A DNA stretch of 64,000 nucleotides from Glandiceps talaboti (taxonomy: Eukaryota; Hemichordata; Enteropneusta; Spengelidae): the NCBI RefSeq assembly GCF_964340395.1, contig NC_135553.1, positions 2,649,001 through 2,713,000 on the forward strand. Direction: 5' to 3'. Shown piece by piece: positions 41,601-43,015 of the stretch. The notes below the pieces were generated by a model. The model was not told where the DNA came from. It did not search any database and saw nothing but the letters and a program-made list of their open reading frames with translations. The stretch's first letter is position 1, and every line of letters begins with the position of its first letter. Both the position numbers and the translations under genes were made by a program.

Positions 41601-43015
41601 ATTTAACTTCCCTGAATGCAAGGAATCCTGGGATATATGGTGAAGTGAGTTGTACCATAGTACAGTCAGAATGTATCACCTAAGTTTAAAAAAAGAAGAA
41701 AAAAAAGTGTATTTCAAATGTGAAAGAAAAGACATGTCTACATATTGCTGCAAATTACTTTTCAACTTTACAAGAAATGTAGGAAAGTGTTGAAACTTAT
41801 GTCATTTGTAAAGTTAATAGATAAATGATTCTTACCTCCAAATCTGGGTATGAGCAAACTATTAAGGAGGCACATGCATTGACATTATCTCCTTTCACAA
41901 AGGAGATATCCACACCACCAACATACTCTAAACCTTCAAATTCTTTTGATGACTGCCATGTTTCTGTGTTCTCTGTAATCAGCTTGGCTTTCAGCTCATT
42001 TTGTTCTCTGTAGAAAAAGGTTGTGATTCACTTTGTCCCAATTTCAACTCACCCTATTTTCAACTCGCCCCATTTTCAACTCGCCCTAATTTCAACTCGC
42101 CCTAATCTCAACACGTTTATAAATCTACATGTTACATGGTCTCGAAGAATGGGGGCCGAAAAATTTACATGATTTTACGTATGTGGCCAGTTGAAGCCTA
42201 GCAAATGTAGCATTTCATAGCAGAAAGTGGTGGTCGAGCATGCATGTGTTTTTGGCAAAGTGTTTGCTAGATCTAGCACTTATACTAGCACAAATAGGCA
42301 ACGGTGTCTATTAACTTTCCTCAGTCATGGAGTATCACTTTTCGCATTATGACTTAATGTTTACAACCCAAATAATAATGATAATAACCAGGGAGAATAC
42401 TAGTGACTGACATGCTTACGACTTCTGTGTATAGGTTTTGGAGATATGTCTCCTCTCCCTAGTTAACGCAGCAAGTTGAAAATGGGACGAGTTAAAACTG
42501 GGGCGAGTTGAAAAGGGGCTAGGGGGTGAGTTGAAATGGGACAAGTTGATCTGTCACTGTGGAAAAGTATTGTCACAAGTCAGAGACGTGTGAATAAATC
42601 CTCATGCAAGGAACACCTTTTTCATCATCACAGACACCTCAGCCTGTTAAAATAATGTATTAAACTCAATGATATATATGTCAGCCTGGAATAAAAACAA
42701 GTACTTCGTTTGTATTTGTTTTCACTTGAGGGTTTGGGAATTCCAGAGTTAAGGGGGAGGGGGGGGGGTCTGGTAATTGATGTTAATATTTCCATATAAA
42801 AATAAGAAAACAACATAAAAACTAAAAAAGATGTCTCACTTTTCCCAGCGTTGTCTTACTTCTTCATCTATCATAACTGTACTTTTGTTGTCGTCTCCAC
42901 TTTGAACCGCCGGTTTATTTGACATTTCATGGTTGGTACTCTCAGTCTGTCTTTCATTTGTGTGGATTTCCACACAGTGATCAGACCGTTCATCTTTCGT
43001 CACACAACAACCCAT
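2614..43015 (-). CDS. ENDOV: Endonuclease V (inosine-specific nuclease), 8 coding exons, 303 aa
   Basis: Joined exons, in transcript order: 43015-42840, 42007-41836, 41679-41545, 40794-40755, 39930-39818, 39700-39632, 17359-17231, 2691-2614. They sum to 912 nt, or 303 codons plus stop, with consistent phases and GT-AG introns. Similarity to vertebrate ENDOV is strong along the core: GGVDISFVKGD, PYIPGFLAFREV, LVDGNG, CIGVAKKLFQVDGL, GGDTFPLVGNSG, VSIGHKINL, RIPEPVRQADIRSRE. Expected catalytic acids are present as D92, E140 and D166, with H253 in the GHK motif. PYIP at 130-133 is the wedge motif. Known family role: cleavage near deoxyinosine in DNA (bacteria) and inosine-containing RNA (animals). 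Odd features are a 59-residue N-terminal extension beginning MGCC, a short C-terminal tail, and two introns of 22.3 and 14.5 kb. Identification is very secure; the start is set by an in-frame TAA four codons upstream of the ATG. Confidence 0.95.
2785..2902 (-). other. Orphan exon-like open frame in ENDOV intron 7
   Basis: A strong acceptor (TTATTTCTTGCAG) is followed by a frame reading SLQIRLVSEALDRLPK and on through HFALSLITELAMDDS to a stop at 2785-2787. It looks like two amphipathic helices but is not in the ENDOV frame: joined to exon 7 (phase 0), the new exon would hit a stop after 12 codons. It could be a relic of another gene, an alternative last exon with a short tail, or chance. I do not recognise the family. 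Confidence 0.3.
3470..4175. repeat. Old dispersed repeat(s) with GTCAAAGGT and GAGGCCTCTGGG tail
   Basis: Positions 3480-3610 are similar to 16795-16905 (shared words AAGTCAAAG.TAAAGGTT, TATAAAAAGAA, TTTGTGTATTCAACTTC). The 3950-4165 segment ends in CCCCGAGGCCTCTGGGTGGT followed by an A-rich stretch, a tail style seen in dispersed elements. Not coding. Confidence 0.5.
4179..4418. mobile_element. MITE, TTAGGCCT termini
   Basis: A 240-bp element with inverted ends TTAGGCCTAATAAAAAAA and AAGGCCTTA. A second copy lies at about 44691-45071, sharing GTGGTTCTGATTA, TTTTAGAATAGGTGGG, GTGTCTAGTTCAGGT and AAAAAACTAGGTGGGG. It is non-autonomous and encodes no protein. Confidence 0.7.
4820..5487. repeat. 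Minisatellite, 9 units of 51-56 bp plus degenerate flank
   Basis: Copies of a unit with ATGTTAGAAAAAGTACCTGA, ACACCTGTGCATTTTG and TTTAAATATACATA run from about 5012 to 5487. Looser AAAAGTACATTGAACACC copies extend left to about 4820. Both-strand open frames here are repeat translations. Confidence 0.9.
6020..6250. mobile_element. Foldback element with 20-bp inverted ends
   Basis: The left end TATATTATACCAGTATATTG (6021-6040) is the exact reverse complement of 6231-6250. The interior is non-coding. It abuts the hairpin at 6256-6391, which may be part of the same composite. Confidence 0.6.
6256..6391. repeat. Long perfect-type hairpin, 61-bp arms, 14-nt loop
   Basis: The left arm (6256-6316) contains ATGGTATACCACTCGG and TTTTGACCAGTGAACTC. 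The right arm (6331-6391) is its reverse complement with about four mismatches, all near the base. The loop is CTCGCTATCGCTCA. Arms this similar suggest a recent origin. Confidence 0.9.
6830..7040. repeat. Three tandem copies of a 71-bp unit
   Basis: GTGTAGTGCAGTGGGCTGTC starts at 6849, 6920 and 6991, giving an exact 71-bp period with over 90 percent identity. It lies in ENDOV intron 7. Confidence 0.9.
9808..9905. repeat. Three copies of a ~33-bp minisatellite
   Basis: CCATAGTTGCTGGTGAGAGA-type units recur three times, the first with CATGCCATAG and the last continuing into GAGAGCTGAGG. Confidence 0.8.
10442..10640. mobile_element. Single-ended copy of the CAATCTGAT foldback family
   Basis: About 140 bp from CAATCTGATTAAAATCCGAT to ACATCTGAAGTGGCGCCCAT match the terminal repeat of the element at 27531-28644, followed by a shared AATCAGGTTG segment. 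No matching right end was seen, so this copy is truncated. Confidence 0.75.
11470..11890. repeat. Dispersed repeat ending in (AATC)n
   Basis: The segment has the style of a retroposed sequence (CAATCTCCAGAGCAATGTTC, AGTCTTCTTGAGG, AAGAGTTCAATAATTTAGGG) and ends near the (AATC)n tract at 11857-11890. No reading frame is kept. Family not identified. Confidence 0.4.
13409..14100. repeat. Diverged direct duplication of ~150 bp with a hairpin between
   Basis: 13409-13560 and 13949-14100 share GTTCTAATATCATTAT, TTTTAATAACA, TATTATATATGTACCA and ACTGCA.TGCAA at a 540-bp spacing. Between them, 13711-13753 and 13823-13860 form an imperfect hairpin (GTGTGGGTATACTTGGGGG against CCCCCAAGTATGCCACAC). Probably remains of transposable elements. 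Confidence 0.6.
14101..16350. other. ENDOV intron 7 segment, no gene recognised
   Basis: AT-rich with three consecutive plus-strand open frames of 63-75 codons at 14711-15361. These show no splice logic, domain or recognisable family and are treated as chance. A two-copy 41-bp repeat (ACCAGCTGTTAAATGCCACA) lies at 15564-15650. Confidence 0.5.
16390..16660 (+). mobile_element. Candidate tRNA-derived SINE
   Basis: GGAGGTCATGGCTTTGAATCCCAC resembles a tRNA T-arm with a B-box; upstream CTCAGGATTGGCAGTTGG could be the anticodon side. The body continues through GTGAGTGTTATTCAAACTGA. It differs from the SINE at 39115. Moderate support only. Confidence 0.4.
16905..17097. repeat. Degenerate CTGCCTGGTCACTGCCCTAA minisatellite
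   Basis: About ten imperfect iterations of a ~20-bp unit of the type ACACTGCCTGGTCACTG / CCCTAACACTGCC, unusually GC-rich for the window. It ends 133 bp before the donor of exon 7, inside intron 7. Confidence 0.8.
17231..17359 (-). CDS. ENDOV: ENDOV exon 7
   Basis: Forty-three codons in phase 0, from ALRSCNTSS through VSIGHKINL to RIPEPVRQ; acceptor TTGTAG, donor GTTAGT. His253 of GHK matches the conserved active-site histidine. The exon is isolated by huge introns and sits between two copies of a 124-bp direct repeat (16665-16788 and 17500-17623). Confidence 0.95.
19865..19970. repeat. Two copies of a ~66-bp unit
   Basis: GGAATCCATTCAAGTTGTAC recurs with the following ATTAAAAA.TAGTCA.TTT, giving a short tandem duplication. 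Confidence 0.75.
20411..20553. mobile_element. Foldback, ~25-30-bp arms
   Basis: ATGATAATCTTTACAGCC (20418-20435) pairs with GGGCTGTAAAGATTTTATCAT (20533-20553). Short, non-coding, likely a MITE remnant. Confidence 0.6.
22221..22385. repeat. Three copies of a ~69-bp unit
   Basis: AAAACTGGGTGTAT with ATCAGAAATATACCT and GATGCCTC.AGTCACCAT recurs at about 22221, 22291 and 22358. Confidence 0.85.
22881..23130. repeat. (GA)n microsatellite with GT and G-rich interruptions
   Basis: About 250 bp of nearly pure GA, interrupted by a short (GT)n at about 22966-22981 and by GGGGGGAGGGAGGGAGGGGG near 23070-23090. Open frames coding Glu-Arg or Ser-Leu strings are artefacts. Confidence 0.98.
23300..23408. 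repeat. (ACGT)n and (ACAA)n microsatellites
   Basis: ACGT repeats at about 23332-23358 pass into ACAA/ACAG repeats to 23408. The preceding 23150-23330 is CA-rich. Confidence 0.95.
25119..25148 (+). other. G-quadruplex-forming block
   Basis: GGGGTGGGAGGGTGGGAGGG and the following TGGGAGGGGG give eight runs of at least three G separated by single bases, an ideal G4 motif. It lies in ENDOV intron 6 on the strand opposite the transcript, so the RNA would be C-rich. Confidence 0.85.
26994..27240. repeat. Three tandem copies of an 82-bp unit
   Basis: GAAGCTTGTG starts at 26994, 27076 and 27158. Units share TTAATTTGCATATCAATGAA and GAGTATACAGAAGAATTTGT. Confidence 0.9.
27531..28644. mobile_element. 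1.1-kb non-autonomous DNA transposon, ~140-bp TIRs, 8-bp TSD
   Basis: The left end TCAATCTGATTAAAATCCGA matches the inverted right end, and similarity continues for about 140 bp, through GGTACATGTTTAC to CATCTGAACTGGCGCCCA, with few differences. A second inverted pair lies inside (ACAGGCAACTGACAACGT against ACGTTGTCAGCTGCCTGT). The flanks are direct repeats TGTATGTA at 27523-27530 and 28645-28652. No transposase frame was found. Relatives are at 10442 and 37243. An 8-bp duplication fits hAT-like or related superfamilies, but the ends are not a hAT signature I recognise. Confidence 0.85.
30619..37224. repeat. 6.6-kb satellite array, ~80 units of 81 or 85 bp, with higher-order repeats
   Basis: The unit includes GGTATAGCTACTTAGATAC, TTTACTCACAAGTGATTC, GTTCAGAGTGTACAATATTA and TGAGTAAGTCACTATAC. 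Two length classes differ by AACT (TACTGTT or TACTAACTGTT). Nested duplications are exact in spacing: 2073 bp (25 units: 13 of 81 and 12 of 85 bp), 336 bp (near 33005 and 33341) and 413 bp (near 36375 and 36788). First and last units are more divergent. Open frames inside, such as two identical 87-codon frames at 32652 and 34725, are repeat translations. The array sits in ENDOV intron 6. Confidence 0.97.
37243..37420. mobile_element. MITE at the edge of the satellite array, TSD TATTTAAC
   Basis: A 178-bp element whose ends CAATCTGATGAAAATCTGAT and the inverted ATCAGATTTTAATCATATTG continue as arms of about 70 bp (CTCTATTTCCATTGTTTTGTG against CACAAAATGATGGAAATAG). Perfect 8-bp target duplications TATTTAAC lie at 37235-37242 and 37421-37428. 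Terminal bases resemble the 27531 element, so it is probably the same family. Confidence 0.85.
39115..39430 (+). mobile_element. tRNA-derived SINE
   Basis: The head GATGGGTGAATGGTTAGAGT has A-box character; GGTTTGAGCCC (39161-39171) is a B-box. The body contains CATTTGTTTCTAA, GCTAAAGTCCTTGG, AGGGAGTTGAGGAAGT and TGTAAAGTCCTTTGAGCACA, ending at a (CA)n tract. A second copy on the minus strand at about 54345-54722 shares these blocks in order. Confidence 0.8.
39431..39500. repeat. (CA)n microsatellite
   Basis: About 35 CA units directly following the SINE 3' end, possibly grown from its tail. Confidence 0.98.
39632..39700 (-). CDS. ENDOV: ENDOV exon 6
   Basis: Twenty-three codons in phase 0, containing GGDTFPLVGNSGRVLGM. 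Acceptor TCTTAG, donor GTAAGT. A tRNA-derived SINE and a (CA)n tract lie 130-520 bp downstream in the 22-kb intron 6. Confidence 0.95.
39818..39930 (-). CDS. ENDOV: ENDOV exon 5
   Basis: Two leading bases complete Glu175, followed by 37 codons; acceptor CAACAG, donor GTGAGT. Contains FGTACHLGVLSDIPCIGVAK and LFQVDGLE, both highly conserved in the family. Confidence 0.95.
40755..40794 (-). CDS. ENDOV: ENDOV exon 4, 40-nt microexon with catalytic Asp166
   Basis: Encodes VILVDGNGLIHPR plus one base; LVDGNG carries the third catalytic acid. Acceptor ATGATAG, donor GTAAGC. The (CAAA)n microsatellite at 40803-40859 reads (TTTG)n on this strand and supplies the polypyrimidine tract. Skipping the exon would shift the frame and remove an active-site residue. 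Confidence 0.93.
40803..40859. repeat. (CAAA)n microsatellite abutting ENDOV exon 4
   Basis: About 14 copies end 9 bp before the exon 4 acceptor. On the transcript strand it is (TTTG)n. Confidence 0.98.
41268..41530. repeat. Degenerate TTCTA / TGTGCTGTACTGTGTTGTAT tract
   Basis: Pentamer TTCTA repeats pass into irregular TGTNNTGTNNTG words. It lies in ENDOV intron 3 just downstream of exon 3. Long frames on both strands are artefacts. Confidence 0.9.
41545..41679 (-). CDS. ENDOV: ENDOV exon 3 (wedge and catalytic Glu140)
   Basis: Forty-five codons in phase 0; acceptor CTTAG, donor GTGAGT. Encodes SPYIPGFLAFREV: PYIP is the strand-separating wedge seen in bacterial enzymes (the human enzyme has PYVSG), and the Glu of FREV is catalytic. 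Confidence 0.95.
41836..42007 (-). CDS. ENDOV: ENDOV exon 2 (catalytic Asp92)
   Basis: Codons 60-116 with one leading base; acceptor CTACAG, donor GTAAGA. Contains GGVDISFVKGD, whose Asp is the first metal-binding acid of the family, and ACASLIVCSYPDLE, a core beta strand. The terminus of an inverted-repeat element lies about 25 bp upstream of the acceptor. Confidence 0.95.
42033..42544. mobile_element. Inverted element with iterated TTTCAACTCGCCC ends
   Basis: The left end TTGTCCCAATTTCAACTCAC is mirrored by the right end TGAGTTGAAATGGGACAA. Each end continues as several tandem copies of TTTCAACTCGCCC (left, about five) or its complement (right, about four). The interior is unique, about 330 bp. 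It is in ENDOV intron 1, 25 bp upstream of the exon 2 acceptor on the transcript. Confidence 0.75.
42840..43015 (-). CDS. ENDOV: ENDOV exon 1 (N-terminal extension with MGCC signal)
   Basis: Encodes residues 1-58 plus two bases of codon 59, with donor GTGAGA. Starts MGCCVTKDE: Gly2, Cys3, Cys4, Thr6 and Lys7 fit an N-myristoylation signal with adjacent palmitoylation cysteines. The rest is hydrophilic and probably disordered until EEVRQRWEK near the end, which aligns with the helix leading into the nuclease core. An in-frame TAA lies just upstream, so no longer start exists in this exon. Met31 is an alternative start that would lack the signal. Confidence 0.92.

What the first reader, a model, noticed from the sequence alone, without database searches (positions are those of the whole stretch)
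42840..43015. Endonuclease V with a predicted myristoyl-palmitoyl membrane anchor
The ENDOV start reads MGCCVTKDE. Gly2 with Thr6 and Lys7 is a textbook N-myristoylation signal, and Cys3-Cys4 is a typical dual palmitoylation site. An in-frame TAA four codons upstream fixes this Met as the first in the exon. The human protein as I remember it (MALEAAGG...) has no such signal. Inference: this animal's inosine nuclease could be tethered to the plasma membrane or endomembranes, placing inosine-RNA cleavage at a membrane. Start at Met31 would give an untethered form.
Basis: partly seen in the sequence, partly recalled or inferred. Interest (0 to 1): 0.72.

Follow-up and report, generated by a model that had tools for sequence, protein, structure and literature searches.

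The report
Endonuclease V with lipid-anchor-like start
An animal gene for an RNA-cutting enzyme begins with a stretch that looks like a signal for attaching fatty acids, so this animal's enzyme may sit on membranes; the sequence supports this but nothing here proves it.

Summary
On the minus strand, 43015-42840 is the first coding exon of an intact eight-exon endonuclease V gene (stop at 2614) encoding 303 residues. From residue 51 it aligns without gaps, at 60% identity, to mouse ENDOV; 12 of 13 listed functional residues are kept. Before that lies an N-terminal extension starting MGCCVTKDE. Met1 has the best start context (A at -3, G at +4) and follows an in-frame TAA. Exon 2 has no in-frame Met before the catalytic Asp, so translation starts in exon 1 (Met1, Met31 or Met48) unless an unseen first exon exists. 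Codons 1-47 look coding. Myristoylation of Gly2 plus palmitoylation of Cys3/Cys4 is a reasonable prediction, but it leans on Cys3, Cys4 and Lys7; Thr6 is unfavourable, and without Cys3/Cys4 proteins in the reference set the start scores no better than random. No animal orthologue, transcript or protein data could be reached, so conservation, start use, lipidation and localisation are untested. Verdict: an ordinary ENDOV core with an unusual, plausible lipid-anchor N-terminus: a new variant of a known kind, of moderate interest, awaiting an orthologue check.

The parts
42840..43015 (-). ENDOV exon 1 (coding part), codons 1-58 plus 2 bases; starts MGCCVTKDE, ends QRWE+aa, donor gtgaga
42995..43015 (-). 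MGCCVTK: candidate N-myristoylation (Gly2) and S-palmitoylation (Cys3, Cys4) signal
   Evidence: sequence directly; pattern and score
43025..43027 (-). In-frame TAA four codons upstream of Met1
43023..43028 (-). GTAAGT, a donor-like site just upstream of Met1; joined to exon 2 it would leave no start before the catalytic Asp
42923..42925 (-). Met31, alternative in-frame start without lipid signal
42872..42874 (-). Met48, alternative in-frame start without lipid signal, roughly human-like length
41836..42007 (-). ENDOV exon 2 (Asp92 = human catalytic Asp52); no in-frame Met
41545..41679 (-). ENDOV exon 3 (Tyr131, Glu140)
40755..40794 (-). ENDOV exon 4 (VILVDGNGLIHPR, Asp166)
39818..39930 (-). 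ENDOV exon 5
39632..39700 (-). ENDOV exon 6
17231..17359 (-). ENDOV exon 7
2614..2691 (-). ENDOV exon 8 with stop codon (ADIRSREFLRQN..., Asp280)
43016..43930 (.). 915-bp region between the divergent start codons of ENDOV (-) and a dynein light chain gene (+, ATG 43931), presumably holding both promoters
   Evidence: dynein light chain by Pfam

Best explanation
The gene is the animal's ENDOV, an inosine-specific ribonuclease by homology, and Met1 is its main start. Methionine aminopeptidase removes Met1, N-myristoyltransferase adds myristate to Gly2 during translation, and a membrane-bound acyltransferase then palmitoylates Cys3 and/or Cys4. That would hold the enzyme on the cytosolic face of the plasma membrane or endomembranes through a linker of about 47 residues, acidic and probably flexible, leaving the catalytic core unchanged. 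Shown: gene structure, kept catalytic residues, motif, open and coding-like frame, start context. Inferred: start use, both lipid additions, linker flexibility, membrane location and any consequence for RNA cleavage.
For: Intact eight-exon gene with GT-AG borders. Pfam Endonuclease_5, E=2e-62. Mouse ENDOV, E=1.7e-101 over query residues 51-290, 60% identical without gaps. 12 of 13 listed residues kept; Leu158 is Phe. Met1 context AAGATGG against GAAATGT for Met31 and GTTATGA for Met48. Codons 1-47 score as coding in frame; 0 of 213 null windows as high. The best AG site between 43400 and 42840 scores 2.9, against 11.4-16.4 for nine modelled acceptors, so nothing suggests an exon start that removes Met1. 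Profile of 36 recalled myristoylated N-termini: query 4.87 bits, 13 of 36 known proteins score higher (leave-one-out), 0.47% of 200,000 random MG peptides reach it. Expected chance count, with 6% MG starts and generic composition: MGCxx[ST][KR] about 0.5 and MGCCx[ST][KR] about 0.01 per 25,000 proteins.
Against: With the 11 of 36 Cys3/Cys4 proteins removed from the profile, the query scores -6.56 and 48% of random MG peptides reach it. Thr6 costs 3 bits even in the full profile. MG is needed but not sufficient: PMC4200515 gives about 7% of gene products with MG and 0.8% of the human proteome predicted myristoylated (passages). The 385 nt upstream hold ten ATGs, all with short closed frames; one at 43285 has a strong context (G at -3, G at +4) and one at 43049, weak, overlaps Met1, so a long leader could reduce Met1 use. 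Human ENDOV isoforms are cytoplasmic and nucleolar and enter stress granules (PMC6839837, section read). No orthologue, transcript or proteomic evidence was reachable. Coding-score caveats: overlapping null windows, the same introns used for background, a small training set with two frames not confirmed as coding throughout. The acceptor scores of the true sites are inflated because those sites built the score.
Confidence: 0.6

Rival explanations
1. Most protein starts at Met48 or Met31, because transcripts begin inside exon 1 or scanning passes Met1. The enzyme is then an ordinary untethered ENDOV, and MGCC is 5' leader or a minor isoform.
For: Met48 gives a length near human ENDOV; the alignment to mouse begins at residue 51. 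Chain 6ozh ('endonuclease V isoform X2', recalled as from the tunicate Ciona) aligns from residue 48 at its own position 5, though constructs may be trimmed. Ten upstream ATGs exist in 385 nt.
Against: Weaker contexts for Met31 and Met48 than for Met1; codons 1-47 look coding in frame while the 141 nt upstream do not (-11.3, -11.6, -16.4 in three frames).
Confidence: 0.2
2. Met1 is used but the tail is not lipidated, or is myristoylated without stable membrane attachment: a drifting disordered extension that happens to read MGCC.
For: The ENDOV C-terminal tail shows no constraint among mouse, rat and hamster (PMC3489907, passage), so disordered ends drift in this family; Thr6, and the profile's dependence on Cys3/Cys4 members.
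Against: Chance MGCCx[ST][KR] starts are expected at about 0.01 per 25,000 proteins under generic composition, though the motif was picked after the fact.
Confidence: 0.17
3. A different first exon is normally used and exon 1 here is alternative or mis-modelled.
For: A donor-like GTAAGT lies just upstream of Met1, and a mechanical scan of 43016-48000 (ATG within 400 nt of a GTRAG donor, at least 8 open codons, right phase) lists four stretches.
Against: None of the four carries the E-E-x4-W pattern that the end of exon 1 shares with mouse; no acceptor-like site allows partial use of exon 1.
Confidence: 0.03

Closest known systems
Human and mouse ENDOV (PDB 4nsp, 6ozj)
   Same: Eight core coding exons (human: PMC6839837, section read); 60% identity to mouse over 240 residues; same catalytic residues
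   Different: The mouse chain has about ten residues before the aligned core and human begins MALEAAG (primer), so neither shows this extension or its Gly2/Cys3/Cys4 start; human isoforms are cytoplasmic, nucleolar and in stress granules
Dually acylated MGC proteins such as the Src-family kinases FYN, YES, LYN and the lysosomal anchor LAMTOR1 (N-termini recalled)
   Same: Gly2 with Cys at 3 and/or 4; Lys7 in the three kinases; acidic residues soon after in several
   Different: Unrelated proteins; YES, LYN and LAMTOR1 have Ser6 and FYN Cys6, not Thr6; their lipidation is established (recalled; YES1 dual acylation in PMC10696250, passage)
OAS1 p46, a prenylated RNA sensor on endomembranes (PMC8357416, abstract read)
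   Different: Prenylated through a CaaX motif, not N-terminally acylated; a synthetase, not a nuclease; no homology claimed

Membership tests
Endonuclease V (PF04493) | Family profile match | tested here: met
   E=2e-62, 210.9 bits against cut-off 23.4
Endonuclease V (PF04493) | Catalytic, recognition and stabilising residues listed for human ENDOV in PMC3489907 | tested here: met
   Asp52, Asp126, Asp240 and Glu100 kept; 12 of 13 listed positions kept, Leu158 is Phe198 (human number plus 40)
Endonuclease V (PF04493) | Core encoded by eight exons in animals | tested here: met
   Eight coding exons with GT-AG borders and a joined frame; intron phases of other species were not in the text seen, so phases were not compared
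Endonuclease V (PF04493) | Inosine-RNA cleavage | not testable with these tools
   Needs an enzyme assay
N-myristoylated proteins | Met-Gly start | tested here: met
   if Met1 is the start used
N-myristoylated proteins | PROSITE-type pattern G-{EDRKHPFYW}-x(2)-[STAGCN]-{P} (recalled) | tested here: met
   13 of 35 MG starts in the window fit it, so the pattern alone is weak
N-myristoylated proteins | Profile similarity to known substrates | tested here: inconclusive
   Good with all 36 recalled substrates; lost when the 11 Cys3/Cys4 members are removed
N-myristoylated proteins | Myristate on Gly2 | not testable with these tools
   Needs labelling or mass spectrometry
Dually acylated membrane proteins | Cys near Gly2 | tested here: met
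   Cys3, Cys4, also Cys14
Dually acylated membrane proteins | Conservation of the signal in orthologues | not testable with these tools
   No animal relative found: viral contigs none in two scans, genome contigs 44 prokaryotic loci, own-genome search did not complete

The most novel reading that the evidence does not exclude
This lineage has turned ENDOV into a membrane-tethered inosine-RNA nuclease, placed by myristate and palmitate where edited or viral double-stranded RNA is made on membranes, with a second untethered form made by leaky scanning to Met48: a lipid-anchored parallel to OAS1 p46.
Probability: 0.2. Interest if true: 0.75.

Novelty: new variant of a known kind. Interest (0 to 1): 0.45.

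Why it matters
The in vivo role of animal ENDOV is poorly known (abstract of PMC6839837). A lineage that fixes it to a membrane would point to where its substrates are and offers a simple test (Gly2Ala or Cys3/4Ser against wild type). In the open-access library, 'endonuclease v' with 'myristoylation' gave one unrelated listing, with 'N-terminal extension' and 'inosine' one unrelated listing, and none of the 12 listed of 201 papers in the palmitoylation search has a title or abstract start about a lipid-anchored ENDOV. The search for 'ENDOV' with 'myristoyl' gave 49 papers; the 10 listed seem to match 'endovascular' and the like. Most subscription papers are not held, so absence from print is not shown.

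Tried and rejected
Alternative first exons: four mechanical candidates in 43016-48000, none like ENDOV. Acceptor sites that would remove Met1: the eight best AG sites printed score 2.9 or less. A PDB relative of exon 1: three chance-level hits to NADH dehydrogenase subunits (E 0.29 to 0.43). In genome contigs: 44 confirmed loci of 156 matched stretches, all bacterial or archaeal by title, best 51% identity, with no bearing on the N-terminus. A first exon model had two borders out by one base, mended; the first search for the last exon found nothing and one search found one candidate. The 2019 study of tunicate ENDOV structures (DOI recalled) is not held. No established myristoylation predictor was available; the profile used is home-made from recalled sequences.
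Full report
What is there. The window is 34% G+C and carries spliced, animal-type genes; the species was not identified. The finding lies on the minus strand. I built a full gene model for endonuclease V: coding exons 43015-42840, 42007-41836, 41679-41545, 40794-40755, 39930-39818, 39700-39632, 17359-17231 and 2691-2614, all with GT-AG borders and one open frame of 303 residues ending in a stop. It is a model from sequence, with no transcript behind it. Pfam gives Endonuclease_5 at E=2e-62. 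Residues 51-290 align to mouse ENDOV at E=1.7e-101, 60% identical without gaps. Of 13 catalytic, recognition and stabilising residues listed for human ENDOV in an alignment legend of PMC3489907 (passage seen), 12 are the same here, metal ligands included; Leu158 is Phe (human number plus 40, as the mouse alignment gives). PMC6839837 says that eight exons encode the human core (section read), as here.

The N-terminus. Exon 1 reads MGCCVTKDERSDHCVEIHTNERQTESTNHEMSNKPAVQSGDDNKSTVMIDEEVRQRWE. The conserved part begins near residue 51, so the residues before Met48 are an extension relative to mouse and human. The 58-residue exon has no convincing relative among solved chains (best E 0.29). An in-frame TAA stands four codons before Met1.

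Which Met. The Mets of the protein are at 1, 31, 48, 124 and 235, and the catalytic Asp is at 92. Exon 2 therefore offers no start, and an active enzyme must start in exon 1 or in an unseen other first exon. Met1 has A at -3 and G at +4; Met31 has G and T; Met48 has G and A. A codon score trained on other coding sequence of the window, without codons 1-48 of this gene, gives +9.8 bits in frame for codons 1-47, against -0.3 and -12.3 in the other two frames and -11.3, -11.6 and -16.4 for the 141 nt upstream. The mean of 213 stop-free control windows was -11.7 and none reached +9.8. Of 5767 intron positions sampled, 278 are stop-free for 47 codons. The controls overlap one another, share introns with the background, and the training set is small and includes two frames not confirmed as coding throughout, so the numbers are a guide and not a probability. 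Against Met1: ten ATGs lie in the 385 nt upstream, all with short closed frames, one of them (43285) in a strong context and one (43049, weak) overlapping Met1; how many are in the mRNA is unknown. No acceptor-like site lies between 43400 and 42840 (best 2.9 bits; the nine acceptors that built the score, 11.4 to 16.4). A donor-like GTAAGT begins 13 bases before the ATG; using it to join exon 2 would leave no start before the catalytic Asp.

The motif. Gly2, Cys3, Cys4, Thr6 and Lys7 fit the recalled myristoylation rules. In the window 13 of 35 MG starts fit the loose pattern, so that alone means little, but MGCC occurs once in 860 open ATGs and 0 times in 24,054 simulated ones. This depends on the substrates with Cys at 3 or 4: without those 11, the query falls to -6.56 and 48% of random peptides reach it. 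Thr6 costs 3 bits in the full profile. [quoted passage not shown] whether an established predictor would give this start high confidence is not known. PMC7373427 gives about 6% and 1.8% for Toxoplasma (passage). PMC10696250 names Ser at that position (its +5) as the highlighted residue and reports three peptides with both myristate and palmitate, among them YES1 (passage). My judgement, not a computed value, is about three in four for myristoylation given Met1, and 0.6 for the whole anchor reading.

What it would do. By homology the enzyme cuts RNA at inosine. The anchor would not alter the core but would restrict where it acts. OAS1 p46 (PMC8357416, abstract read) shows that a lipid on an RNA-acting enzyme can give it better access to viral replication sites; that is analogy only. 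Human ENDOV isoforms are in cytoplasm, nucleoli and stress granules (PMC6839837, section read), so a membrane form would be a departure.

What could not be done. The collections I could search hold no animal genomes by their descriptions. Viral contigs gave no relative in two scans, genome contigs gave 44 prokaryotic loci, and the own-genome search did not complete in eight tries.

Verdict. Observation confirmed; interpretation partly supported. It is a normal ENDOV gene with an unusual N-terminal extension that may be a dual lipid anchor: a new variant of a known kind.

Noticed in passing
window 42037-42540: Element of about 500 bp in ENDOV intron 1 whose ends are short arrays of 16-bp units in inverted orientation (arms 48 nt, 83% complementary); looks like a non-autonomous DNA transposon close to the exon 2 acceptor.
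   Followed up: partly
window 30616-37237: Satellite array of about 80 copies of an 81-bp unit inside ENDOV intron 6, an intron of about 22 kb.
   Followed up: no
window 43931-46385, + strand: Dynein light chain gene (Pfam PF01221; DNAL4-like by recall), divergent from ENDOV with 915 bp between the start codons.
   Followed up: partly
window 51859-55490, - strand: Leucine-rich-repeat exons (Pfam LRR_1, tested on 51859-52590 only); LRRC14-like by recall only, and the exons at 53.0-55.5 kb are placed by eye.
   Followed up: no
window 57442-58047, + strand: Open frame of about 200 aa with a secretion-signal-like start (MKILVIAIVFIVGVSA) and acidic end; no Pfam match for 57424-58044.
   Followed up: no
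L001 5442-6143 and L002 10001-10705: Two deltaproteobacterial MAG contigs (one Myxococcales) encode EndoV 51% and 45% identical to this animal protein, the other 42 loci 43% or less; possible gene transfer or close kinship.
   Followed up: no
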